Of a stretch of 64,000 nucleotides of DNA, positions 39,665-53,640 are shown piece after piece (within the stretch, counting starts at the first letter, position 1; each line of letters begins with the position of its first letter). The DNA comes from Aquipuribacter sp. SD81 (GTDB lineage: Bacteria; Actinomycetota; Actinomycetes; Actinomycetales; JBBAYJ01). The notes below the pieces were generated by a model. It made no database searches. It was not told where the DNA came from and saw only the letters and a list, made by a program, of their open reading frames with translations. The position numbers were made by a program, and so were the translations under genes. The DNA is taken from NCBI RefSeq assembly GCF_037153975.1, contig NZ_JBBAYJ010000016.1:1-64000 (forward strand), read 5' to 3'.

Positions 39665-39757
39665 GGAGGGCTGTCCGAGTGGCCGATGGAGACGGTCTTG
39701 AAAACCGTTGGGCGGGTACCCACTCCCGTCTCGTGGGTTCGAATCCCACGCCCTCCG
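39665..39757 (+). tRNA. tRNA-Ser (anticodon TGA)
   Basis: A 93-base class II tRNA. The acceptor stem GGAGGGC pairs with GCCCTCC, the anticodon loop CTTGAAA gives TGA, a long variable arm follows, and the T arm is GTGGGTTCGAATCCCAC. The discriminator is G and CCA is not encoded. The base composition changes downstream, so its 3' end is a likely integration site, though no second copy of that end is present in the window. Confidence 0.93.
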
Positions 39758-40193
39758 CACCTGGGGTTTTGTGGGTCTGACCTGCAACGATGCGGATTCG
39801 CTTGGCCTTCGGGTCGCGCGCTACTGGTCCGGCTGTGTCCGGCCGTGAGCAGCCGTATACGGCTGGCTGTGCCCTATGAGTGCCCTCGGGAGGTCGTCCC
39901 GTTAGAGCGGGACTTGGCAGCGCCTGAGGTGGCGCACAGCGAACTGTCGGTTCGCCACGGGCGCTGCCAGAGCCCCGTCAGAGCGGGACGACGCGCCTGA
40001 GGTGATGCACGGGGAAGCGTCGGTTCACCACGGGGCCGTGAGAGACCCAGCGAAGACTTGGCAGACCTCGCCAGTACACGACGCGGGGCCTCACACCTCG
40101 GCGCTCGCGGACGAAGATCGCAGGCGGCCTGGACGCATGAAGCTTCTTGCGACTTGCACTACGCCGGCGGGTCTCACCTCGGAAGGGCCGCCC
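39758..40193. other. 436-bp gene-free stretch with palindromes and a duplicated hairpin
   Basis: No convincing gene. It contains a perfect 14-bp palindrome AGCCGTATACGGCT at 39851-39864 and a duplicated block at 39904-40033 (separate entry). It lies between the tRNA-Ser 3' end and the 3' end of the leftward metallo-beta-lactamase gene. It could hold integrase arm sites or a non-coding RNA; I cannot tell which. Confidence 0.5.
39904..40033. repeat. two-copy diverged repeat with internal hairpin
   Basis: Two copies of about 55 bp (39904-39960 and 39980-40033) share AGAGCGGGAC, GCGCCTGAGGTG and GTCGGTTC-CCACGG blocks. In each, the GTGGCG/GTGATG stretch faces CGCCAC/CACCAC and can form a stem; one pair differs by a compensating change. 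Copy 1 is also enclosed by TGGCAGCGCC and GGGCGCTGCCA, which can pair. Confidence 0.65.
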
Positions 40194-41051
40194 TCAGACG
40201 ACGGTCGGCTTGAGCGTGTGGCGGAGCGTGAACACTTGCATGAGCAACGAAGACCCGCAGTAGGTGTGACCACTCGCCGGACATCCGCTGCATCCCGACG
40301 TCCGTTGCGTGCAGGCAACCTCAGAAACGCTTGCTGCGGCAGAAATCACCCCGAGGTGAGGGTGCGCGTAAGTGTTTTCGGCCCCAACTGAGACAATCGT
40401 GGCGTCCGGATTGGTGCTCGATAGTAGTTTCTTGGCGATTGACAGAGTTGGGTCGCCGTGCAATTCGGCTCCGTGATGGGGCCACCGCAACACGGACGCT
40501 TGCCCCAGTCCGCTCGACAAAAGGCGCGACCAAGTGGACGCGACAGCATCGCCGCCGATGAGAATGCGAACGTTGCCCACCAGCACTTCTACGACTGCGG
40601 ACGCCTCATTCCGCCTCCCCTTCACGTAGGCGGAAGATATTTCGGCGTGGGTCGGCGCCAGCAGACGCCACTTGATGCTGCCAACCGACCCACTCGCAGG
40701 GTATGCAGCTGGATTGAGGGAGCCTGGTGGAAGATTAAGAAACGTTTTCAGCGTACTTCTGATGCCGCTGCGCCCGTAAGGAGGCTCGGGAAACAGCGTG
40801 TCGTGGTTGTAGAAGACCTGCGGCGGCAGGAAACTTCTGGCGAGCCGAGCGACCCCGCCGTAGTGATCACGATCCCAATGGGTTACCAGTACAGCCGCCA
40901 AATGCAGATTGTTCGTTCTCAGAAAGGCAGCAATTCGGTTCGCCGCATGGCTCGGGCAGTCCACGATTAGCGCTGCTCTAGACAGTGAGTCGACCATCAA
41001 GGTGCAGTCCCCCTGGCCAACGTCGATGAAGTACAATTCGGCGAGTGTCAT
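40194..41051 (-). CDS. ComEC/Rec2-like metallo-beta-lactamase fold hydrolase
   Basis: A 285-residue MBL-fold protein of the type found at the C-terminus of ComEC. It starts ELYFIDVGQGDCTLM and carries metal ligands in THWDRDHYGG (His58, Asp60, Asp62, His63), then ILIGGDA and the PHHG site, ending near NTYAHPH. There is no membrane part, so it is a cytoplasmic hydrolase, probably on nucleic acid. The C-terminal Cys-rich tail (CTQRTSGCSGC) may bind zinc. CAGGAG 11 bases before ATG 41051 lies inside the end of the methylase gene: a two-gene operon. Confidence 0.8.
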   Translation of the reverse strand: MTLAELYFIDVGQGDCTLMVDSLSRAALIVDCPSHAANRIAAFLRTNNLHLAAVLVTHWDRDHYGGVARLARSFLPPQVFYNHDTLFPEPPYGRSGIRSTLKTFLNLPPGSLNPAAYPASGSVGSIKWRLLAPTHAEISSAYVKGRRNEASAVVEVLVGNVRILIGGDAVASTWSRLLSSGLGQASVLRWPHHGAELHGDPTLSIAKKLLSSTNPDATIVSVGAENTYAHPHLGVISAAASVSEVACTQRTSGCSGCPASGHTYCGSSLLMQVFTLRHTLKPTVV

Positions 41052-41059
41052 CGACTTCT

Positions 41060-43684
41060 CTACTCCTGGAGCTCGGATGTTGATACCTCGCTTGGGAGAC
41101 GCCACTCTGAGGGGTGCAGACTGAATATCGCCTTCTCGATCCCTGTGCCATAGGGCTGCACGGAGAAATCCTGCCCCTGTGCCATGAGCCAGCCGTGGGC
41201 TCGCTTCGGCACGGCGATCCATTCACCCTCGTCTGCAGTCATGCCCGAGACCCATACTCGGAGGCCCATATTCGGCGAGACCTCGAGCACCTCACCGAAA
41301 GTAGGCAGCTCAGTGGTCTCATCGTAGAAGACAGAGAGGCTTGGGGCAGGAAAGCGTTCGGTCCCTTCTGGAGCGATGGACCCGCCGAGAATGGATTTCA
41401 TCTCTTCTTGTATGCCAGCTGGCACCTGGTAGATATCCGCAACAAGAGCTTCGAGCTCCGAACAGAGACGTGACATCTCGTCGTCAGAACCGCTCTGAGC
41501 GACTCCAAGCAGTGCCTTCCCCATGTTCGCCAGTCGGTGCCATCCGTCGGCCGGTGGAAGAGGGAGAGAGTCGAAACTTCGTGGACTGAGGTTTCGTCCC
41601 CTCGAGTGCTCTCCCACCCAGCAGTTGGCCAGCGCCGAGCCGAGAAGTGCCATTAGCGCAGGAAGGCGATCCGTGGCGGGAAGGTCGCCCCAGCGATGGT
41701 CGTCTTTCGGGACAATCAGGTGGAAAGTCTCGCGGAGCACCGCGCCGGAGTCATCGAAACCAACCTTGAACCGCCATGGGTCACCTGTGGACCACCGCTT
41801 TGCAGTGACCACGAGCTTGGGTGGTTGCACGTACTTTGCCCAAGCCGGACCCGTGTTATCGAAGTCTTCGGGGAAGCGGACTGGAGTCTTTGCGATGGCC
41901 CTGCCGAAAGCTGGTAGGTCGCGGAGTGACGTCAATTCCCAATGACTCGCATCATTAGCCGTTCGGCGCGGCCGGCCGGGCTTGTGAGGGCGGCCATTAC
42001 GAACCACGGCGATATTCGCAATGGATCCGGCCGTCAAGCCTCGCTGCGTGAGGAAACTGGTGATCGGCCCCTGTAGTAGCGCATCCGCTGACTCATTTGC
42101 GTCCACCAATATCGCAGACTCGGGGGTGCCGAGTTCGTAGAATGAGGCCAAGTTCTCGGCTCGGCGCACGGTCTTGATGAGAGTTGGCCGCCGGATTGTG
42201 TGGCGTGACTTTTGCGCCACTACGACAATCGGTGCAATCGCATCGCTCACGGTCGGAAAAACCTCTGTTGGTAGATACCACAAATCCAGCAACCGGGCTT
42301 GAGCCAGCAACTCTTGGCGAGCGCTGCGATTGGACGCGGCCTCGGCCCAGCCGAGAGGCAACACGCACGCCACGTAGCCGCCCGGGCGCACAGCCTCGAG
42401 CATCCAACTCACGAAGAGGTTAGCCCTCTCGACTCTGTAGCCTTGGGCTCGAGTTTGAGACCAGGGCGGATTGCTTATAATCATGGAGGGCGCGCCAGCA
42501 TTGTCAGGCGGCATGGACAGCACGTCAGCAGTCTGTACTCGCCAACTGTTCCCCGCCGGGAGTGCGGCTAGGAGGAGCGACAATTTTGAGATCTCAACAG
42601 CAAAAGGGTCGTTGTCGAAGCCCGCCAAGTGACCAGTCACGTACTGATGCGCGGAAGCTATGTCGCTTGTGGCGCTGTCCGCGAGCAGCGCATGGCGTAG
42701 CCGCTCGGCTCCAGCCAGGAGCATAGTGCCCGACCCACACGTCGGGTCCAGGATGTGTCTCTCCGCTGGGGGGAATGATTCGACAGGTAGCGCTGCCGCC
42801 ATCTGTCTAGCTAGTCCTGGTGGGGTATAGAACGTGCCCTGGACTCGGCGCTGAGTAGGCGATACTAATGCCTCTTCGTAAACGTCACTGACCATGGCGG
42901 GCTCGAGGCCCGCAAAGGATAGAGAGGAGGCCAGTTGGTCCACGAGCGCATTGAATAGCTCGAACTCATGCGACGGCATGGCGACTGTCCAGTCAAAGTA
43001 TCCGGGGAAGCGCTGGATTGCCGCGTCAATCAGCGCACCGCCAGTCTGCGCTTCAGGGAGTATCCGCTTATCGCGGAGCATAGAGACAGCTATGGCTGCA
43101 AGGGCGAGTCGGGTTATTGACGTTGGAACGGCATCGGGCAGAAGCGATGCAGCTGACGCAACCAAGTCCTCTACCGCTGAAGTGAGTATCTCTCTGCTCT
43201 TGCGACGAGACACATGCATCAGTTCGCCTGCGTCTAACGGAAACAACGCCGCTTGACTAAGGCCGTGATCCTTGGGTCGTCGAAGTACTTCGCGGCCGTA
43301 TGCCGACCGGCGATCGCTTAACTGCCCGACCTCACCAATCGGCACTTGCTCCAGACGCTGCAATGCGTTGACGTCTGCTCGAATTGCCCACACTGAGACA
43401 TTCGAATGGTCGACAGTCAGGGCGAGGGGAGCGGCAAGCATGGTAGCCATGGAGTGGAGGAGCGACAATTCATTGCGGCGCGTGGTGTCGGAAAACTCAG
43501 CAATCAGTGTAGCGGTGGACGCGTCGTGAATCTTCGAGTCGGTGAATGCGACCACATCGGCTACCCTCTGCTCGCGAACAGATAGGTTGACGGGAAACTC
43601 GCGCTCGATATAGCTCGACGAGTAGCCCCACTGATCCAGCAGCGCGCCAAGCACTGCAACTCGTCCTTCAATGTCGCCTTGCAC
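41060..43684 (-). CDS. N6-adenine DNA methylase with restriction-like N-terminus
   Basis: An 874-residue protein. Residues 20-75 resemble the N-terminal nuclease-like domain of type I R subunits (EREFPVN...ADVVAF...LIAEFSD), but the catalytic Lys of the ExK motif is replaced (EFS). Then GTFYTPPGLA (283-292), SAM motif I DPTCGSGT (313-320) and catalytic NPPW (405-408) define a gamma-type N6-adenine methylase; the last 350 residues would be target recognition. GTG at 43684 follows GGGAG by nine bases. Its base composition is AT-richer than the chromosome. Paired with the MBL gene, it suggests a defence system. Confidence 0.82.
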   Translation of the reverse strand: MQGDIEGRVAVLGALLDQWGYSSSYIEREFPVNLSVREQRVADVVAFTDSKIHDASTATLIAEFSDTTRRNELSLLHSMATMLAAPLALTVDHSNVSVWAIRADVNALQRLEQVPIGEVGQLSDRRSAYGREVLRRPKDHGLSQAALFPLDAGELMHVSRRKSREILTSAVEDLVASAASLLPDAVPTSITRLALAAIAVSMLRDKRILPEAQTGGALIDAAIQRFPGYFDWTVAMPSHEFELFNALVDQLASSLSFAGLEPAMVSDVYEEALVSPTQRRVQGTFYTPPGLARQMAAALPVESFPPAERHILDPTCGSGTMLLAGAERLRHALLADSATSDIASAHQYVTGHLAGFDNDPFAVEISKLSLLLAALPAGNSWRVQTADVLSMPPDNAGAPSMIISNPPWSQTRAQGYRVERANLFVSWMLEAVRPGGYVACVLPLGWAEAASNRSARQELLAQARLLDLWYLPTEVFPTVSDAIAPIVVVAQKSRHTIRRPTLIKTVRRAENLASFYELGTPESAILVDANESADALLQGPITSFLTQRGLTAGSIANIAVVRNGRPHKPGRPRRTANDASHWELTSLRDLPAFGRAIAKTPVRFPEDFDNTGPAWAKYVQPPKLVVTAKRWSTGDPWRFKVGFDDSGAVLRETFHLIVPKDDHRWGDLPATDRLPALMALLGSALANCWVGEHSRGRNLSPRSFDSLPLPPADGWHRLANMGKALLGVAQSGSDDEMSRLCSELEALVADIYQVPAGIQEEMKSILGGSIAPEGTERFPAPSLSVFYDETTELPTFGEVLEVSPNMGLRVWVSGMTADEGEWIAVPKRAHGWLMAQGQDFSVQPYGTGIEKAIFSLHPSEWRLPSEVSTSELQE

Positions 43685-43984
43685 CCGACGAGTCTCCCAG
43701 TCTGCCGATGAACCACACGACACGTGAGTGGCGTGTCCCGCACTTCTCCTCGGCACACTGCCGGAGAGGCAGGACACAACCGTCAATCGCGCGCTGCATG
43801 GTCGGGAGCCGGTAGCACGGACTCTCAGTGCAGGGCTCAAAGGACCGAAGAGGGCGCACTGGTCGCTCCCCTTCCGGTGGGCAGGCGCAGGTGTGTCGCC
43901 GATGCCCGCCTGGCGGCACGCCCGCGGAAGCAGCAGTCGCTGGGAGCGCGTTCGCATCACGAAGCCCCGGATACCGTGTTGTTC
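43685..43984. other. 300-bp divergent intergenic region
   Basis: No gene seen. It separates the leftward methylase from the rightward HD gene and must hold both promoters. A hyphenated palindrome GACACG-TGAGTGG-CGTGTC at 43719-43737, 35 bases upstream of the methylase start, is a possible operator. Confidence 0.5.
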
Positions 43985-47613: not shown

Positions 47614-47796
47614 ATGAGCCGAACCACGCACCTGTCCATCGCCGATGTGTGCGCCGAGCTCGGCGTGTCGCGCTCGACCTACTACGACTGGCGCGCGAAG
47701 GGGCGCGGTCCTCGCTCGCTCAAGCTGCCGAACGGTGAGATCCGCATCCGCCGCCACGACTTCGAGCAGTGGCTCGCCAGCTGCGATGAGTCGTGA
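47614..47796 (+). CDS. xis: excisionase (AlpA/MerR-like helix-turn-helix)
   Basis: A 60-residue DNA-binding protein: LSIADVCAELGVSRSTYYDWRAKGRGPRSLKL then EIRIRRHDFEQWL, the standard helix_turn_helix_17 excisionase layout. GGAAGGA lies seven bases before ATG 47614. Its stop overlaps the integrase start (GTGA), as in many actinomycete elements. It should bend attachment-site DNA to favour excision. Confidence 0.88.
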   Translation: MSRTTHLSIADVCAELGVSRSTYYDWRAKGRGPRSLKLPNGEIRIRRHDFEQWLASCDES

Positions 47797-49178
47797 TGTC
47801 TGGCATTGAGGGTGACGAGTCCGTCGTCGCGTACGACGTCCGCGTCTTCTCCATCTCGCGCGTCAAGGGCAAGACGGTGACGACGTACAGGCTCCGTTGG
47901 GAGGTCGGCAATCGGCGGCACTCACGGTCGTTCTCGACCAGGGCGCTCGCCGACAGCACGCGTTCCATGCTCGTCGCGGCGAGCAAGAAGGGGGACCCGT
48001 TCGACGTCGAGACCGGGCTTCCGCAGGCGCAGGTCGCCAGAGAGCTGAGCCTCACCTGGTGGGCGTGGTCGTTGACGTACGTCGACCTGAAGTGGCCGGC
48101 CCTTGCGCCCATCTCTCGCCGCTCCCTCGCGGAGGCGTTGGTCGACATCACGTTGCACCTCAGCCGCTCGACGCCGGACCGTCCTCCGACGACTAACCTT
48201 CGCCAGGCGATGTTCGCGTGGGCCTACCACTCGCAGAACCGAGAGGCGGGGGAGGTGCCTGCGGAACTCGGCATGGCGGTGCGGTGGCTGGAGCGCACGT
48301 CGCCCGCCATGGCGGTTCTCGAGGAGCCCTCAACGGTCCGTGAACTGCTGCAGGCGCTGGCGCGCCGGCAGGACGGCCGGCCCGCCGCCGCCACGACAGT
48401 GGCGCGGAAGCGCGCCATCCTGAACAACGCCCTCGAGGTCGCGGTGGAGCACCGGCGCCTCAGCAGCAACCCGCTTACGAAGACGAGCTGGAAGGCGCCT
48501 CGGGTGGACGACACGATCGACGCTCGGTCGGTGCTCAGCCCACAGCAGGCCCGCGCACTGCTCGACGCGGTCGACGCTCAGGGGCCGCGGGGGCGTCGCC
48601 TGACCGCGTTCTTCGCCCTCATGTACTACGCGGCCCTACGGCCCAGCGAAGCAACGGCGTTGACCGTCGACGACCTTGAGCTGCCGGAGAGCGGCTGGGG
48701 ACGACTGCACCTCTCGCGGAGCGACGCGGAGGTCTCCGGCAGGTGGTCCGACTCTGGGCAGCGGTCGAGCCGCCCGCTGAAGCACCGCGCGCAGGGTCAC
48801 GTGCGGCTCGTACCGCTCGCCCCGCAGCTCGTCGAACACCTGCGCAACCACGTCGAGGAGTTCCACGTCCGGCCGGGTCAGAGGCTCTTCCGCGGGCCGC
48901 ACGGCGGCACGGTCAACGCCAAGACCTACACCGACGTGTGGCAGCGAGCGAGACGTGCCGCCCTGACGCCAACCGAGCAGGCAGGTTCGCTCGCCCGGCG
49001 CCCGTACGACCTCCGCCACACCGCGGTGTCGACGTGGCTCGCTGCCGGCGTCGACTCCGCCCAGGTTGCCGCGTGGGCCGGCCACAGCGTCGCCGTGTTG
49101 CACCGGGTGTACGCGCACGTCGTCGAAGGGCGGTCGGACATCGCTCGGCTGCGCATCGAGGCGATGCTCAAGGAGTAG
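47793..49178 (+). CDS. int: tyrosine-family site-specific integrase
   Basis: A 461-residue tyrosine recombinase. An N-terminal arm-type DNA-binding region and SAM-like core-binding domain precede the catalytic domain with Arg283 (ALRPSE), Arg408 in PYDLRHT (the usual first His of HxxR is Tyr405), His431 (AGHS) and nucleophile Tyr440 (RVYAHV). It is the integration and excision enzyme of this element. GTG 47793 is followed at once by ATG 47796; either may start. The 74 bp downstream shows no tRNA-like attachment sequence, which is unusual. Confidence 0.92.
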   Translation: MMSGIEGDESVVAYDVRVFSISRVKGKTVTTYRLRWEVGNRRHSRSFSTRALADSTRSMLVAASKKGDPFDVETGLPQAQVARELSLTWWAWSLTYVDLKWPALAPISRRSLAEALVDITLHLSRSTPDRPPTTNLRQAMFAWAYHSQNREAGEVPAELGMAVRWLERTSPAMAVLEEPSTVRELLQALARRQDGRPAAATTVARKRAILNNALEVAVEHRRLSSNPLTKTSWKAPRVDDTIDARSVLSPQQARALLDAVDAQGPRGRRLTAFFALMYYAALRPSEATALTVDDLELPESGWGRLHLSRSDAEVSGRWSDSGQRSSRPLKHRAQGHVRLVPLAPQLVEHLRNHVEEFHVRPGQRLFRGPHGGTVNAKTYTDVWQRARRAALTPTEQAGSLARRPYDLRHTAVSTWLAAGVDSAQVAAWAGHSVAVLHRVYAHVVEGRSDIARLRIEAMLKE

Positions 49179-49252
49179 GCCGGGCCGTTCGGTTGCCTTA
49201 GAGCTGCGCCGAATACGACCGGCCCCGCGCAGCGCCTTGCGGTCGAACGCCC

Positions 49253-50692
49253 TCAGCGTCCGAGCATGCCTGCAGCACGGACGGCGACCGAGCCCGGGCT
49301 CGAGGGACGGTCCAGCGCCCGCTGCGTCAAGCGGCTCACGACGATCGCGCGCGGAGGTTGCCCGATCCGGGCGAGAGTCAGGGCGGCCCCCGCCTCTCCG
49401 GCCGGGAAAGGGTTGTGCCCGGCCGCCGCCTCGACGCCATGGGCCGTATGGCGCGTGTCCCGAAGTCGCATCACCACGTCGGGGACCTCCGCGGTGGCCG
49501 ACGGCGCGCGCACCACCCACAGCACGCTCGTCGCCCGCTCGTTCGGATTGGGCACGAGCCACGAGCCGGAGCCGAGCTGCCGGAGCGCCGTGCGTTCAAG
49601 AGCGTCGACCAGCGCTGGCTGACTCCTCGCGAGCGCGGCCGCGACCTCACCGGCGTGCTTGTGCGACGGCGGCATCGCAGACACGAACGACAGGACGGCC
49701 TGGCTCTGCAGGAGCGCGCGGGTGTCGCTGCGCGGCTCGACGGTCGCCAAGGCGCGTGGGACCACACGGCTGAGTGCGTCGAGGTGCGACTTCGCGGCGT
49801 CGGCAACAGCCGGGTCGTCGGTGAGGCGGGCGACGTGCTGCATGAGCCGTGCCTGGGCGTGGACGGCCAGCACGAAGTCGCGCGGGCTGATGACGTTGGC
49901 GCGGGCGAGCAGTTCCGCGATCGCGGCTTGTGCGTCCGGCACGTGCGCGGGATGGCGCAGCGGGGCCGGCCGCGTGACCGGCTGCCGCAGTGGGCCGACG
50001 TCCGGCAGTGGGCCCTGCTGGGCCATGGAGAGGACGCGCTCGCCCGCAGCACGGAGCCCCTCTACTGCGGCCGTCGCGTAACGATCGGACAGCTCGGCGG
50101 GCGACACGGCGAGGCGCTCCTGCAATGCGCTCGACATACGGCTGGCCGCGTGCGAGATGTCGAGGTCGAGCAGGGCGGCCGCCTGGCTGAGCGCCGCCAC
50201 GTCGGCCATCACGGACCACGCCTGGTGCTGCTGCGGGCGGGATTCCGGATCCGCCGAGCGCCAGGCGTGCCCGGCCACGGTCGCCGCCTTGACGAGGGAC
50301 TGCCAGGCGGCCGACGTACCCGGTGCCGCTCGTGTCGCCATGACGTTGGAGACGGCAATTCCACCGGAGACGGTGTGCCTTTCGAGGGCGTCGCCGAGCG
50401 CACGGACCGGGTTCCGCTCCAGCAGCTCGATCGACGGTGCCGCCGGCAGCCGCTCGCGCTCGCGCTGTGGCCGCGCGGTCAGGTCACGGTGGACCTCGCG
50501 CAACAGCCGGATGAGCGCTCCATGGCCAGCCAGCGTCAGCTCAAGGTGCTTGGGCGTGCCCGGCTCCTTGGCGGCCAGGAGTCGCGCGACGTGGTGGCCC
50601 ACGGCGTGCCACGACTCGCTCCACTGCTGGGCGTTCATCGCGGGGCCAGGACCCAGCGGTCGCCCGCCTGTCGTCGAGCTCTCATTGGCCAC
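49253..50692 (-). CDS. hypothetical ICE protein, helical
   Basis: A 479-residue protein, Ala-rich and predicted mostly helical, without membrane segments, signal or recognisable motifs. The last 100 residues (GSWLVPNPNERATSVLWVV...TLARIGQPPRAIVVSRL) look like a separate beta-containing domain. GTG 50692 is chosen from GGAGA five bases upstream, 13 bases after the stop of the preceding gene. Third gene of a leftward operon divergent from mobC/relaxase, so a conjugation-related role is likely but unproven. Confidence 0.6.
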   Translation of the reverse strand: MANESSTTGGRPLGPGPAMNAQQWSESWHAVGHHVARLLAAKEPGTPKHLELTLAGHGALIRLLREVHRDLTARPQRERERLPAAPSIELLERNPVRALGDALERHTVSGGIAVSNVMATRAAPGTSAAWQSLVKAATVAGHAWRSADPESRPQQHQAWSVMADVAALSQAAALLDLDISHAASRMSSALQERLAVSPAELSDRYATAAVEGLRAAGERVLSMAQQGPLPDVGPLRQPVTRPAPLRHPAHVPDAQAAIAELLARANVISPRDFVLAVHAQARLMQHVARLTDDPAVADAAKSHLDALSRVVPRALATVEPRSDTRALLQSQAVLSFVSAMPPSHKHAGEVAAALARSQPALVDALERTALRQLGSGSWLVPNPNERATSVLWVVRAPSATAEVPDVVMRLRDTRHTAHGVEAAAGHNPFPAGEAGAALTLARIGQPPRAIVVSRLTQRALDRPSSPGSVAVRAAGMLGR

Positions 50693-50705
50693 GACCGTCT
50701 CCGAC

Positions 50706-51047
50706 TTATCCCTCGCTCGATGAGGACGGCGGGGCAGTCTCCCGCAGGGTTCGAGCCGCCATGCCCCATGGCACCAAACGCGACGGTGAGGACCCGGCTT
50801 CCTGCTCGATGAGGCGCTCAAGGGCCTCAGCGGCGTCGCGCGTTGCCCGCTGCCACGTGCCGCTGCGGACGTCCCGCGGCTCGATAGGTGCGTACGGAGG
50901 CGCGACGTCGAGCAGTGCGCCGTAGACGTCGGCGATCACGAGACGTGCCTCGCTCGGGACGTCGTCTCGTTGCAGGACACCGTCGAGGAGGGCCACTGCC
51001 TCTCGCAGCTCACGCGGTGCCTCCTGCGAGTCGCCCGTCGTGCTCAC
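50706..51047 (-). CDS. hypothetical ICE protein, 113 residues
   Basis: A small acidic helical protein (LREAVALLDGVLQRDDVPSEARLVIADVY; ATRDAAEALERLIEQEAG). Middle gene of the leftward three-gene operon; its ATG overlaps the preceding stop (ATGA). No family recognised. Confidence 0.6.
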   Translation of the reverse strand: MSTTGDSQEAPRELREAVALLDGVLQRDDVPSEARLVIADVYGALLDVAPPYAPIEPRDVRSGTWQRATRDAAEALERLIEQEAGSSPSRLVPWGMAARTLRETAPPSSSSEG

Positions 51048-51370
51048 TGCTCGTTCTCGCTCTCGGGCGTGCGGTCGTCGGCGGCATCGGGTCCACGGCC
51101 GGTTTTCGCGGGTGCTGACGCCGCAGCTCTGGTGCGCGGCCGTCCGGGCAGGCGGACCTTCGGCACGTCCAGGCCCACCCGCTTGAGCTCGTCCTCCGTC
51201 CAGCCGGCCCGCAGTGCAGCGGCCCAGGCGCCGGCGTCCTCGCGCTCAGCCACCGCAAGCGCAGCGCTGGCGTCGAGGCGCCGCTGTCGTGCCTGCGCGA
51301 GCAGGCGCACCGCGGCGACCTTCTCGTCCAGCAGCGCACGCGCCGCCTTCTCGACGTGAGCGGTGTCCAT
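51044..51370 (-). CDS. hypothetical ICE protein near oriT
   Basis: A 108-residue protein. It has a coiled-coil-like N-terminal helix (VEKAARALLDEKVAAVRLLAQARQRRLDA), GWTEDELKRVGL, and a basic C-terminal tail (RLPGRPRTRAA) that could bind DNA. GAGGG nine bases before ATG 51370 favours it over ATG 51385. First gene of the leftward operon facing mobC across the probable origin of transfer, which suggests a relaxosome accessory role. Confidence 0.6.
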   Translation of the reverse strand: MDTAHVEKAARALLDEKVAAVRLLAQARQRRLDASAALAVAEREDAGAWAAALRAGWTEDELKRVGLDVPKVRLPGRPRTRAAASAPAKTGRGPDAADDRTPESENEQ

Positions 51371-51385
51371 CGTCGCTGCCCTCAT

Positions 51386-51619
51386 GACGGACAGCCTACG
51401 TAAACTGTTATCCACAGCGCCAGTCCGTGTCGACTGTTGTGAACAACTCCGCCGGGCGCCCACCCTGGACAGAACGCACAGCCAGGAGGGAGCGGAGCAA
51501 GCTATGCACTTGCGTGCCGTAAGCGGTCGAGGCGCTGACGCCAGCCTCGCCCGAGGCGTGCCAGGGGGCACGGTCCCCGTGGCCGGGGTCGCTGCGCTGG
51601 GCCTGAGGGAGCACGTCGG
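51386..51619. promoter_or_regulatory. probable origin of transfer with DnaA-box-like sites
   Basis: The divergent gap before mobC holds TTATCCACA (51408-51416) and, inverted, TGTGAACAA (51438-51446), both one change from the actinobacterial DnaA box TTGTCCACA. GCAAG-N7-CTTGC (51497-51513) is followed by GTGCCGTAAGCGG, resembling a hairpin plus nic region of mobilisable plasmids. Further hairpins CCTCG/CGAGG and GTGCC/GGCAC lie to the right. Position and structure fit oriT; the nick site is inferred only. Confidence 0.55.
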
Positions 51620-52015
51620 ATGACCGGCGGGACGTCTCGTGCCGGTGCGTTGCGCCGCCGGCGTCGCGCCAACGTGCCGGGTGGCCGGCACCACTCCCAT
51701 CGGGTGCTGGTGACACCGGAGGAGGAGGCAGTCCTCGTCCGGCTCGCGGAGGCCTCGAGGGTGACGGTGCCGAGGCTGCTTATCGAGGCGGCGATGAGCG
51801 GCGGCGGTGAGACGCCGACGGAGCGCCGCGACGCCGTCGCGGGCCTCTACTCGGTCCGGCGGCTGCTTGCCGCTGTCAGTAACAACGTGAACCAGCTCGC
51901 GCGTCACGCCAACTCGGGCTTCGGCTTCCCCGATGAAGCCGCGGCGACGCTGGTGGCCGTGCGGCGGGTCGTCGTGCGGATCGACGCGGTCGTCGAGGCG
52001 TTGAGCGAGCCGTGA
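51620..52015 (+). CDS. MobC-like relaxosome accessory protein
   Basis: A 131-residue protein. A basic N-terminus (LRRRRRANVPGG) precedes a ribbon-helix-helix-like part (HRVLVTPEEEAVLVRLAEASRVTVPRLLIEAA) and the MobC signature AVSNNVNQLARHAN. MobC proteins help the relaxase open DNA at oriT. Coupled by GTGA to the relaxase, with oriT-like DNA upstream. Confidence 0.85.
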   Translation: MTGGTSRAGALRRRRRANVPGGRHHSHRVLVTPEEEAVLVRLAEASRVTVPRLLIEAAMSGGGETPTERRDAVAGLYSVRRLLAAVSNNVNQLARHANSGFGFPDEAAATLVAVRRVVVRIDAVVEALSEP

Positions 52016-53640
52016 TGCCGAACATCACCCGCGGCAGCCGCATGGGTGGGTTGTTGGCGTACCTGCAGGGCCCGGGGCGAGCGAACGAGCACACGGACCC
52101 GCACCTGGTTGCCGGCGACGTGTCCGTCATGACGTTGCACGGCAATGCCGTCCTCGACCGCCCCACGGCGCTTGCCATCGCCGCGCAGCTCGACCAGCCG
52201 CGTCGCGCCTTCGGCGTCGAGGTCGCAGGAGGGTCGGTCTGGCATTGCTCGCTCAGTCTTCGCGCGGACGAGGGCCAGTTGAGTGATGAGCAGTGGGCAG
52301 AGATCGCGCGCGACTTCGTCGAGGGGATGGGCTTCTCGGACGAGACCCGCACCGACGAGGACGGTCAGGTCGTGGGACGAGCCGGGTGCCGGTGGGTGGC
52401 CGTTCGGCACGGGGTGTCCGCCAACGGCAACGACCACGTGCACCTCGCTGTGTCGCTGGTGCGAGAGGACGGCACGAAGGCGTCCGTGTGGAACGACCGG
52501 CGCACTGCCCAACGGATCGCCGGCGAGCTCGAGGCCCGGCACGGGCTGCAGGTGTTGGAGTCCCGCGCGGTCGGTCGAGGGGGACGTGGGTACAAGCCGG
52601 CGGAGCTCGCGACGGCGCAGCGTCGCGGCGACGTCGAGCCGGCCCGCGCGGCGCTCGCCCGCGCGGTGCGGGCCCACGCCGGTGCCGCAGCGGACGAGGC
52701 CGAATTTGTGCGTCGGCTTCGCCGCGGAGGGCTGCTCGTGCGACCTCGCTTCGCCACGGGTCGGGACGACGTCGTGGTGGGGTACTCGGTCGCCCTACGC
52801 CCGCCCGGGGGTGCGAAGGGGACGGCGGCCGAACGTCCCGTCTGGTACGGCGGCGGCCACCTGGACAAGGACCTCAGCCTGCCCCGACTCCGGCGGGAGT
52901 GGCCGGACACTCCGACCGGCGCGAGCGAGGCGGTGGCGGAGTGGAACGCCGCTCGCCGCGGCGCCCGCCTGGTGAGGCCGGGGCGGGAGGAACAGGAGCC
53001 TGCTCCGCGACTGTGGCAGGAGTACGGACGCGACATCGCGGCGCTTCGGGAGCGGCTTCGGCAGGTGCCCGTGACGGAGCGCGCGACGTGGGCGCACGTT
53101 GCGCATGAGACTGCGGGCGCGCTCGCCGCGTGGTCACTGCGTGTCGAGCAGCCCCCCGGTCCGCTCGCCGAAGCCGCTGACGCGCTGGCTCGGTCGGCGC
53201 ATGTCAGGGCGGCCGACGTACCCGCGTCGCGCCTTTCCGACGTCTCGGCGGTGAAGGGCGCGACGCTGCTCCTTGCGTCGCTCTCGCGCGGCGGACGAGG
53301 GACGGTCGCGCAGGCGATCCTGCTGCGGCAGCTGATGAACCTCGCCAAGGCGATTCACGACGCTCATGTGGCCGTTGGCGAGGCCACGCGCGCGGCACAG
53401 GTCGCCGCGGCGGCGCGTCAGCAGTTGCGCCAGGTCCAGTTGGGCCTGCCGGTGGTGCGCGTGCATCCGGACGTTCAGGTCGGCAAGCCAGCGGCCAGAC
53501 CGGGGCGGGCTACGCGCGTCAGCCCGACCGAGGGGGCGAGCGCCGCGGTCGGTCTCCTGGGCTCGGACCCAAGGAGCATCAAGCACCGGCGTGTCACGCC
53601 CCGACCGTCTGCTGTGGCCGACGTCGAGGTCGGGAGGTAG
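52012..53640 (+). CDS. MobA/VirD2-family relaxase
   Basis: A 542-residue relaxase. The metal-binding motif III is HVH at 142-144 in ANGNDHVHLAVSLVRED; an N-terminal Tyr16 (LLAYLQG) is the likely nucleophile. The region after residue 200 is helical and probably contacts the transfer machinery. It would nick oriT and pilot the strand to the coupling protein encoded at the right end of the window. GTG 52012 overlaps the mobC stop. Confidence 0.85.
   Translation: MMPNITRGSRMGGLLAYLQGPGRANEHTDPHLVAGDVSVMTLHGNAVLDRPTALAIAAQLDQPRRAFGVEVAGGSVWHCSLSLRADEGQLSDEQWAEIARDFVEGMGFSDETRTDEDGQVVGRAGCRWVAVRHGVSANGNDHVHLAVSLVREDGTKASVWNDRRTAQRIAGELEARHGLQVLESRAVGRGGRGYKPAELATAQRRGDVEPARAALARAVRAHAGAAADEAEFVRRLRRGGLLVRPRFATGRDDVVVGYSVALRPPGGAKGTAAERPVWYGGGHLDKDLSLPRLRREWPDTPTGASEAVAEWNAARRGARLVRPGREEQEPAPRLWQEYGRDIAALRERLRQVPVTERATWAHVAHETAGALAAWSLRVEQPPGPLAEAADALARSAHVRAADVPASRLSDVSAVKGATLLLASLSRGGRGTVAQAILLRQLMNLAKAIHDAHVAVGEATRAAQVAAAARQQLRQVQLGLPVVRVHPDVQVGKPAARPGRATRVSPTEGASAAVGLLGSDPRSIKHRRVTPRPSAVADVEVGR

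What the first reader, a model, noticed from the sequence alone, without database searches (positions are those of the whole stretch)
40194..43684. Candidate undescribed defence unit: N6-adenine methylase plus ComEC-like MBL hydrolase
Two overlapping-context genes in AT-richer DNA beside a tRNA: a large methylase with DPTCGSGT, NPPW, a long recognition region and an N-terminal restriction-type domain whose ExK lysine is lost; and a separate MBL-fold hydrolase with complete HxDxDH site and a Cys-rich tail, whose ribosome binding site lies inside the methylase gene. The MBL protein could supply the nuclease activity that the degenerate N-terminus lacks, giving a modification/restriction pair. 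This is not a layout I can assign to type I, IIG, BREX, DISARM or Pgl.
Basis: partly seen in the sequence, partly recalled or inferred. Interest (0 to 1): 0.72.

Follow-up and report, generated by a model that had tools for sequence, protein, structure and literature searches.

The report
DNA methylase paired with exchangeable toxic effector
Two neighbouring bacterial genes, a DNA-marking enzyme and a probable DNA-cutting enzyme, form a small mobile unit that recurs in distant bacteria, where the cutter can be replaced by other toxin-like proteins; it looks like an undescribed kind of anti-virus alarm, though no function has been tested.

Summary
The two genes are real: an 874-aa N6-adenine-type DNA methylase (41060-43684, -) and, 8 nt downstream, a 285-aa ComEC-like MBL hydrolase (40194-41051, -). 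They are the only convincing genes in a ~4.1-kb, lower-GC insertion beside tRNA-Ser; one congener has 83 bp there, another 4.4 kb of different cargo. The pair recurs: methylase relatives in a cyanobacterial plasmid and in two genomes of the Chloroflexi set are followed, with 4-bp overlap, by an MBL with the same C-terminal CT-x(5)-C motif. But the same methylase family is elsewhere followed by a PIN (3 loci), RES (1) or HEPN-like (1, by eye) protein: nine intact loci, four effector types. The family is a clade among the methylases compared (92/92; 100/99 without two long branches). Best reading: the methylase marks self DNA and controls an exchangeable toxic effector, released on infection or methylase inhibition; here the effector is a DNase. 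Simple restriction-modification is the main rival. The pair matches no PADLOC or NCBIfam system and was not found in eight literature searches of the open library. Nothing has been tested functionally, and the sample is small.

The parts
41060..43684 (-). N6-adenine-type DNA methylase, 874 aa, GTG start; N-terminal region, methylase core, long recognition region, C-terminal 'GEVLEVS..EGEWI.VP' segment shared with the Pseudanabaena relative
   Evidence: family alignments with the window start at residue 14-20 in several rows, which fits the GTG start
42461..42472 (-). methylase catalytic motif NPPW (residues 405-408)
   Evidence: NPP[WF] in 10 of 10 family methylases
42728..42748 (-). SAM-binding motif DPTCGSG (residues 313-319)
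   Evidence: a motif of this loose pattern in 9 of 10 family methylases (the Sinorhizobium row gave none)
40194..41051 (-). ComEC-like MBL-fold hydrolase, 285 aa, probable DNase effector
   Evidence: closest solved structure 9ic4, ComEC MBL domain, TM 0.72/0.77; model mean pLDDT 74.7
40863..40880 (-). metal-binding HWDRDH motif of the MBL
   Evidence: H59, D63, H64 invariant in the 5 Cys-tail MBLs aligned
40257..40313 (-). Cys-rich tail CTQRTSGC...C of the MBL, shared with MBLs of L066, L115, L116 and L125
   Evidence: C248, T249, C255, C266 invariant in 5 of 5
39890..43983 (.). inserted cargo segment of about 4.1 kb (approximate edges from alignment ends)
   Evidence: G002 has 83 bp and G001 4418 bp of other sequence between the same flanks
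39665..39758 (+). tRNA-Ser (TGA) flanking the insertion
   Evidence: also in L042 and L043
43985..44551 (+). HD-domain gene, right-hand flank shared with both congeners

Best explanation
A two-gene mobile defence-type module. The methylase marks specific host DNA sites and controls its partner; the partner is a toxic effector, here a ComEC-like MBL DNase, kept idle in a healthy marked cell. When the methylase meets unmarked foreign DNA, or is blocked by a phage inhibitor, the effector is released or activated and degrades DNA, stopping phage growth, probably at the cost of the cell. Shown: both genes, conserved methylase motifs and MBL metal-site motifs, insertion at a variable site, recurrence of the pair, and replacement of the MBL by PIN, RES or HEPN-like proteins in the same methylase family. 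Inferred: methylation activity, DNase activity, control of effector by methylase, the trigger, and defence as the function.
For: Nine intact family loci, each with an effector gene immediately downstream on the same strand: gap -4 bp in 5, 0 to 8 bp in 4. Effectors: MBL in window, L066, L115, L116; PIN in L124, L128, L129 (PF01850 8e-12 to 2.7e-9); RES in L065 (1.5e-16); HEPN-like in L117, by eye only (Pfam gave only a weak WH2_Lhr at 0.029; no PADLOC or PDB match). In L065 the methylase carries a C-terminal Xre/MbcA/ParS toxin-binding match (1.5e-4, below cut-off), and its residues from about 803 on match plasmid proteins annotated as Xre/MbcA/ParS antitoxins at 31-37% (rows listed), linking methylase and toxin control. 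The family is one side of a branch against nine other methylases that I picked from the hits (92/92; 100/99 with eight of them and without the long Pseudanabaena row). MBL loci with the truncated G174 gene form one subclade (91/94; 98/97), PIN/RES/HEPN-like loci the other (100/100; 100/99). Tail motif: CT-x(5)-C in the 5 MBLs aligned, absent from 32 of 32 recognised MBL frames in 33 viral loci, and found in 1 of 17 recognised frames of 21 MBL-hit loci from 296 genomes of the window's phylum; none of those 21 loci had an NPP-motif frame over 200 aa within the ~1.5 kb held on either side. In a separate methylase-GHKL-receiver operon the tailed MBL (Hymenobacter plasmid L125) stands where an HNH-like nuclease stands in L019, as expected if it is a nuclease. 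HamM, an MBL of defence loci, is an indiscriminate DNase when activated (PMC12799240 passages). Mobility: insertion at tRNA-Ser, low GC. The Agrobacterium relative lies beside a Shedu-annotated gene and a ResIII/DEAD helicase.
Against: No activity is measured. Only nine intact loci; 0 of 75 and 0 of 76 genomes in two further phylum sets matched at 1e-40, without a positive control in those sets, and only the window's own genome of 394 in the class at 1e-20. The window's MBL is divergent (23-30% identity to the others) and scores weakly to defence MBL profiles (RTasMBL 1.5e-5). L066 and L115 MBLs score better (4.3e-16 to 6.8e-7 for RTasMBL, the profile named LmuA and Avs1a), but RTasMBL also rings in B. 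subtilis and L. lactis and on frames of ComEC size, so these matches are not specific. The tailed MBL is not exclusive to this methylase family: the Hymenobacter one lies in another operon and lacks the last His of the site (H231). The window locus lacks the small HTH-type gene seen upstream in four of the nine loci. How the MBL would be kept idle is open. Control: 0 of 10 stretches holding other methylases had an MBL frame, but they are few and one of them (L065) also holds a family member.
Confidence: 0.5

Rival explanations
1. Plain restriction-modification: the methylase protects its own sites and guides the MBL, as a separate restriction subunit, to cut unmodified DNA.
For: Methylase motifs, a long recognition region and no recognisable nuclease of its own; MBL-type loci are a subclade, so this branch could work differently from the PIN/RES branch; HNH/MBL interchange in the GHKL operons.
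Against: Sister loci use PIN, RES and HEPN-like partners, expected from family knowledge to act on RNA or NAD+; the published MBL HamM cuts DNA indiscriminately.
Confidence: 0.26
2. Addiction module: the methylase acts as antitoxin by binding the effector, serving only the upkeep of the mobile segment, not phage defence.
For: Xre/MbcA/ParS-like tail next to RES in L065; loci on plasmids and at a tRNA.
Against: A full methylase with the NPP motif in 10 of 10 is more than an antitoxin needs; variable cargo site and Shedu neighbour suggest defence.
Confidence: 0.16
3. Two neighbours without a common function: an orphan methylase and an unrelated MBL enzyme.
For: MBL-fold enzymes are common and varied; the window gap is 8 nt rather than an overlap.
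Against: The pair recurs in three further loci with 4-bp overlaps and the same MBL tail motif.
Confidence: 0.07

Closest known systems
MADS (MAD2 methylase)
   Same: Best PADLOC match of the window methylase (1.4e-20, core only); an N6 methylase of a defence system
   Different: NCBIfam MAD2 score 56.9 against a cut-off of 720; no further convincing gene in the insertion
Trypsin-MBL module of Hachiman, AVAST, Lamassu and DRT (HamM, Avs1a and kin)
   Same: ComEC-like MBL beside a control gene; L066 and L115 MBLs match the RTasMBL, LmuA-named and Avs1a profiles, though RTasMBL is not specific
   Different: No protease gene in the insertion; partner is a methylase; the words methyltransferase and methylase do not occur in the held text of PMC12799240
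Type IIG / type II restriction-modification
   Same: Single-chain methylase with recognition region plus a likely nuclease
   Different: No detectable PD-(D/E)XK nuclease; effector is a separate gene and varies
PrrC with EcoPrrI (toxin guarding a type I system)
   Same: A toxin kept silent beside a modification system and set free when that system is inhibited would be the same principle (PMC12707154, passage seen)
   Different: There the guarded system is type IC R-M and the toxin an anticodon nuclease; here a single methylase with varied effectors
BREX and BREX-related (BR) systems with auxiliary nucleases
   Same: N6 methylases with auxiliary HNH, PIN and HEPN nucleases nearby (PMC12839542, passages seen)
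   Different: Those have BrxC or DUF499 ATPases and more; the window insertion has two convincing genes; BREX_2 PglX score 39.5 against 400

Membership tests
Type II/IIG restriction-modification | DNA methylase with catalytic motif | tested here: met
   N6_Mtase 2.4e-14, NPPW, DPTCGSG; specificity itself not measured
Type II/IIG restriction-modification | fused PD-(D/E)XK nuclease with ExK | tested here: not met
   HSDR_N_2 19.5 bits vs cut-off 25; pattern [EQ]xK absent from the first 170 residues of 8 of 10 family members, the window included (exceptions L116 and L124); hhalign to intact domains 0.1%
Type II/IIG restriction-modification | cleavage of unmodified sites | not testable with these tools
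   needs enzyme assay
MADS | MAD2 methylase above curated cut-off | tested here: not met
   56.9 bits vs 720
MADS | further mad genes in the operon | tested here: not met
   ORF listing and GC-bias gene call show only methylase and MBL as convincing genes in the insertion; flanks not scanned with mad profiles
BREX / Pgl | PglX above cut-off with BrxC/PglY and PglZ | tested here: not met
   BREX_2 PglX 39.5 vs 400; no room for the others in the insertion
DISARM | methylase with helicase, PLD and DUF1998 genes (recalled) | tested here: not met
   two convincing genes in the insertion
Trypsin-MBL module | ComEC-like MBL with metal-site motifs | tested here: met
   (window MBL only 1.5e-5 to RTasMBL)
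Trypsin-MBL module | adjacent trypsin-like protease fused to a defence enzyme | tested here: not met
   no third convincing gene in the insertion; methylase gave no protease match in Pfam. Not scanned with a protease profile in L066, L115, L116
Trypsin-MBL module | inhibitory insertions with conserved isoleucine cut sites | not tested
   no reference sequence at hand
Guarded toxin / toxin-antitoxin | toxin-type gene coupled to a control gene | tested here: met
   PIN and RES partners by Pfam in relatives; gaps of -4 to 8 bp in 9 of 9 loci
Guarded toxin / toxin-antitoxin | toxicity alone, neutralised by partner | not testable with these tools
   needs expression tests

The most novel reading that the evidence does not exclude
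A new class of immune module in which one DNA methylase serves as epigenetic self-marker, sensor and antitoxin at once, with a plug-in toxic effector that has been swapped at least among MBL DNase, PIN RNase, HEPN-like RNase and RES NAD+-degrading enzyme; loss of marking or inhibition of the methylase is the alarm.
Probability: 0.4. Interest if true: 0.85.

Novelty: new variant of a known kind. Interest (0 to 1): 0.7.

Why it matters
Retrons, CBASS and Avs systems are known to combine one sensor with exchangeable effectors (recalled). A methylase doing the same would join restriction-modification and abortive infection in two genes and would show directly how modification enzymes can guard toxins. 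It also adds an apparently protease-free setting for ComEC-like MBL nucleases, so that their activation can be compared across systems. The unit is small enough to test on one plasmid.

Tried and rejected
Close orthologues by exact peptide patterns: none for the window methylase in genome contigs or viral contigs; the alignment scan of genome contigs gave four distant methylases; the Pseudanabaena methylase gave none in viral contigs. tblastn of the window methylase in the phage collection: none. Viral MBL relatives (33 loci; one more): 32 had a recognised MBL frame, none with the tail motif by strict or loose pattern; four of the 33 loci had an NPP-type frame somewhere in the held stretch, which I did not follow. 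MBL search of 394 class genomes at 1e-20: own genome only. MBL search of 296 phylum genomes at 1e-12: 21 others, 10 in short frames (297-400 aa) and 11 in longer ones; no NPP frame over 200 aa near any of the 21. RTasMBL profile over 51 genomes of the Chloroflexi set: 13 genomes hit, 10 in frames of 781 aa or more and three short ones (L139-L141) without the tail motif; it did not recover the paired MBL of G792 at 1e-8, so it is no reciprocal test. Hits seen and not counted as family: L002-L010 and L012-L017 (core matches; the stretches of L012-L016 were fetched wider, L017 was not), G844 (a type I-like locus by eye), G990, G971, G996, G976 (partial, not followed), L103-L110 (not followed), plasmid hits H3, H4, H8, H111, H112 (looked at) and H5-H7, H9, H113-H119 (not looked at). 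The idea that the N-terminus is a dead type I/IIG nuclease: not supported by profile comparison and not settled by folding the window methylase alone (mean pLDDT 35). Literature: searches of the open PMC library listed no paper that I could recognise as describing this pair; I saw listings, and passages only of PMC12799240, PMC13092281, PMC12839542, PMC11090510, PMC10853773 and PMC12707154. Subscription papers and most preprints are not held.
Full report
Observation. The methylase frame is 41060-43684 (-), 874 aa, GTG; the MBL frame is 40194-41051 (-), 285 aa, ATG, 8 nt after the methylase stop, with a GGAG inside the methylase's last codons. Pfam gives N6_Mtase 2.4e-14 and Lactamase_B 1.7e-9; HSDR_N_2 at the methylase N-terminus is below its cut-off. 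The best named profiles are ComEC/Rec2 for the MBL (2e-17; 62.6 bits against 190 for a full ComEC) and, for the methylase core, MAD2, far below its cut-off. A model of the MBL built with 28 viral relatives (mean pLDDT 74.7; the tail poorly modelled) matches the ComEC MBL domain 9ic4 best, TM 0.72/0.77. The methylase folded alone gave no usable model.

Setting. GC of the two genes is 59.5% and 59.4% against 72.8% for the window. Two genomes of the same genus share both flanks. In G002 the aligned flanks are separated by 83 bp; in G001 by 4418 bp of different sequence that includes frames of 340 and 160 aa without Pfam match and a DUF4279 protein. So about 39890-43983 is cargo in a variable site between tRNA-Ser and an HD-domain gene; that it is recent is inferred from the low GC. 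A tyrosine integrase, MobC and a relaxase lie further right.

Relatives of the methylase. Within 396 genomes of the window's phylum, eight had a match at 1e-12, one of them the window's own; only G174 (36% over 473 aa) is a close relative, and its frame is short (529 aa) and followed by a transposase-like frame (transposase by recall, not scanned). In 394 genomes of the class only the window's own genome matched at 1e-20. Plasmids (72,556 records) gave nine records, of which Rhizobium sp. Q54 and Pseudanabaena galeata proved to be family. A profile then found four matches at 1e-22 among 141 genomes of the Chloroflexi set, three of them family, and another profile five at 1e-25 among 109 of the Planctomycetes set, one of them family and four partial and not followed. 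Two more came from plasmids of Agrobacterium and Sinorhizobium. None matched at 1e-40 in 75 genomes of the Bacteroidetes set and 76 of the set around a Syntrophomonadaceae genome; there was no positive control in those sets. Best alignments with the window span 641 to 804 aa for five of the intact relatives (L115, L116, L117, L124, L128) and 337 to 410 aa for three (L065, L066, L129); eight of the nine comparison methylases match, over 147 to 355 aa. The Pseudanabaena row is the most distant (74 bits), close to the best comparison row (77 bits), so its place rests also on the shared C-terminal segment, the MBL partner and the tree.

Partners. All nine intact loci have an effector gene directly downstream: MBL in the window, L066, L115 and L116; PIN in L124, L128 and L129; RES in L065; a 127-aa HEPN-like protein in L117, named by eye only. 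Gaps are -4 bp in five loci and 0 to 8 bp in four. Four loci (L065, L066, L128, L129) also have a small HTH-type gene just upstream: MerR_1 matches at 5.1e-5 (above cut-off) in L066 and 4.1e-4 (just below) in L129; the three rhizobial ones are alike. The window has none. In L065 the methylase ends in a segment like Xre/MbcA/ParS antitoxins.

MBL details. The four paired MBLs and the Hymenobacter one share H59, D63, H64, D169, H193, H194 and the tail residues C248, T249, C255, C266; the last site residue H231 is shared by the four paired ones but not by Hymenobacter. The tail pattern CT-x(5)-C was absent from 32 of 32 recognised MBL frames of 33 viral loci and present in 1 of 17 recognised frames among 21 MBL-hit loci of the window's phylum; no NPP-motif frame over 200 aa lay in any of those 21 short loci. 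In the Hymenobacter plasmid the MBL is the fourth gene of a methylase-GHKL-receiver-like operon; in genome G067 the like operon ends with an HNH-like gene (HNH 0.0013, just below cut-off). That exchange supports a nuclease role for the tailed MBL, by position only. Matches of L066 and L115 MBLs to defence MBL profiles carry little weight, since RTasMBL also rings on ComEC-size frames and in two control genomes.

Tree. With nine comparison methylases picked from the hits, the ten family methylases are one side of a branch (92/92), and the MBL loci plus the truncated G174 gene another (91/94, not starred); the Pseudanabaena row is a long branch. Without it and one other long row the values are 100/99 and 98/97. 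RES and HEPN-like partners lie inside the PIN branch (100/100 and 100/99; the forks that join HEPN-like and RES rows to PIN rows have 94/94 and 90/92, 80/76 and 81/80), so effectors have probably been exchanged there.

Mechanism. A mechanism common to the family must suit effectors that are expected, from family knowledge, to hit RNA (PIN, HEPN) or NAD+ (RES) as well as DNA (MBL). A methylase that marks self sites and restrains a toxin until foreign DNA or an inhibitor appears meets this; site-directed restriction meets it only for MBL. The published MBL HamM is an indiscriminate DNase once activated, likely killing or arresting the cell (PMC12799240; passages). PrrC shows that a toxin can guard a modification system (PMC12707154; passage). 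Every functional step here remains inferred.

Novelty. No PADLOC or NCBIfam entry reached describes the pair, and eight literature searches of the open library listed nothing that I could recognise as it. PMC12839542 (passages) reports HNH, PIN and HEPN nucleases as auxiliaries of BREX loci, which is the nearest printed idea seen. I rate it a new variant of a known kind, with a real chance of a new class.

Noticed in passing
window 39690-39760 and G000:C16:84352-84420, 93188-93258 (L025): The 3' three quarters of tRNA-Ser is repeated as 69-71-bp copies (86% and 99%) further along the contig, with at least seven such places in G001 contig 5 and four in G002 contig 1 (one search lists at most 25 matches a genome); ARAGORN calls no tRNA in L024 or L025. 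They look like attachment sites of repeated integrase-borne elements.
   Followed up: partly
window 47793-53640: Tyrosine integrase (47793-49178), MobC (51620-52015) and MobA/VirD2-type relaxase (52012-53640): body or remains of a mobilisable integrative element.
   Followed up: partly
L042 3506-7923: The same site in a congener holds other cargo: frames of 340 and 160 aa without Pfam match and a DUF4279 protein. The site behaves as a cargo hotspot.
   Followed up: partly
L065 5465-9368: Rhizobium sp. Q54 plasmid: HTH-like gene, methylase with Xre/MbcA/ParS-like tail, RES toxin, beside a type IIG-like enzyme with intact EVK.
   Followed up: yes
L125 1880-7014 and L019 844-6354: Separate operon type: methylase, GHKL ATPase, receiver-like protein, then tailed MBL (Hymenobacter plasmid) or HNH-like protein (G067). 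Looks like a further methylase-linked system.
   Followed up: partly
L115 10630-12309: A caspase-domain protein (PF00656, 1.7e-14) lies near the G792 methylase-MBL pair on the other strand.
   Followed up: no
L066 9721-10428: A prokaryotic E2 family D gene (8.6e-27) lies close to the Pseudanabaena pair on the other strand.
   Followed up: no
G000:C16:73828-74487 (L009, L024): A further methylase, matching the core only, lies about 30 kb to the right of the pair in the same contig.
   Followed up: no
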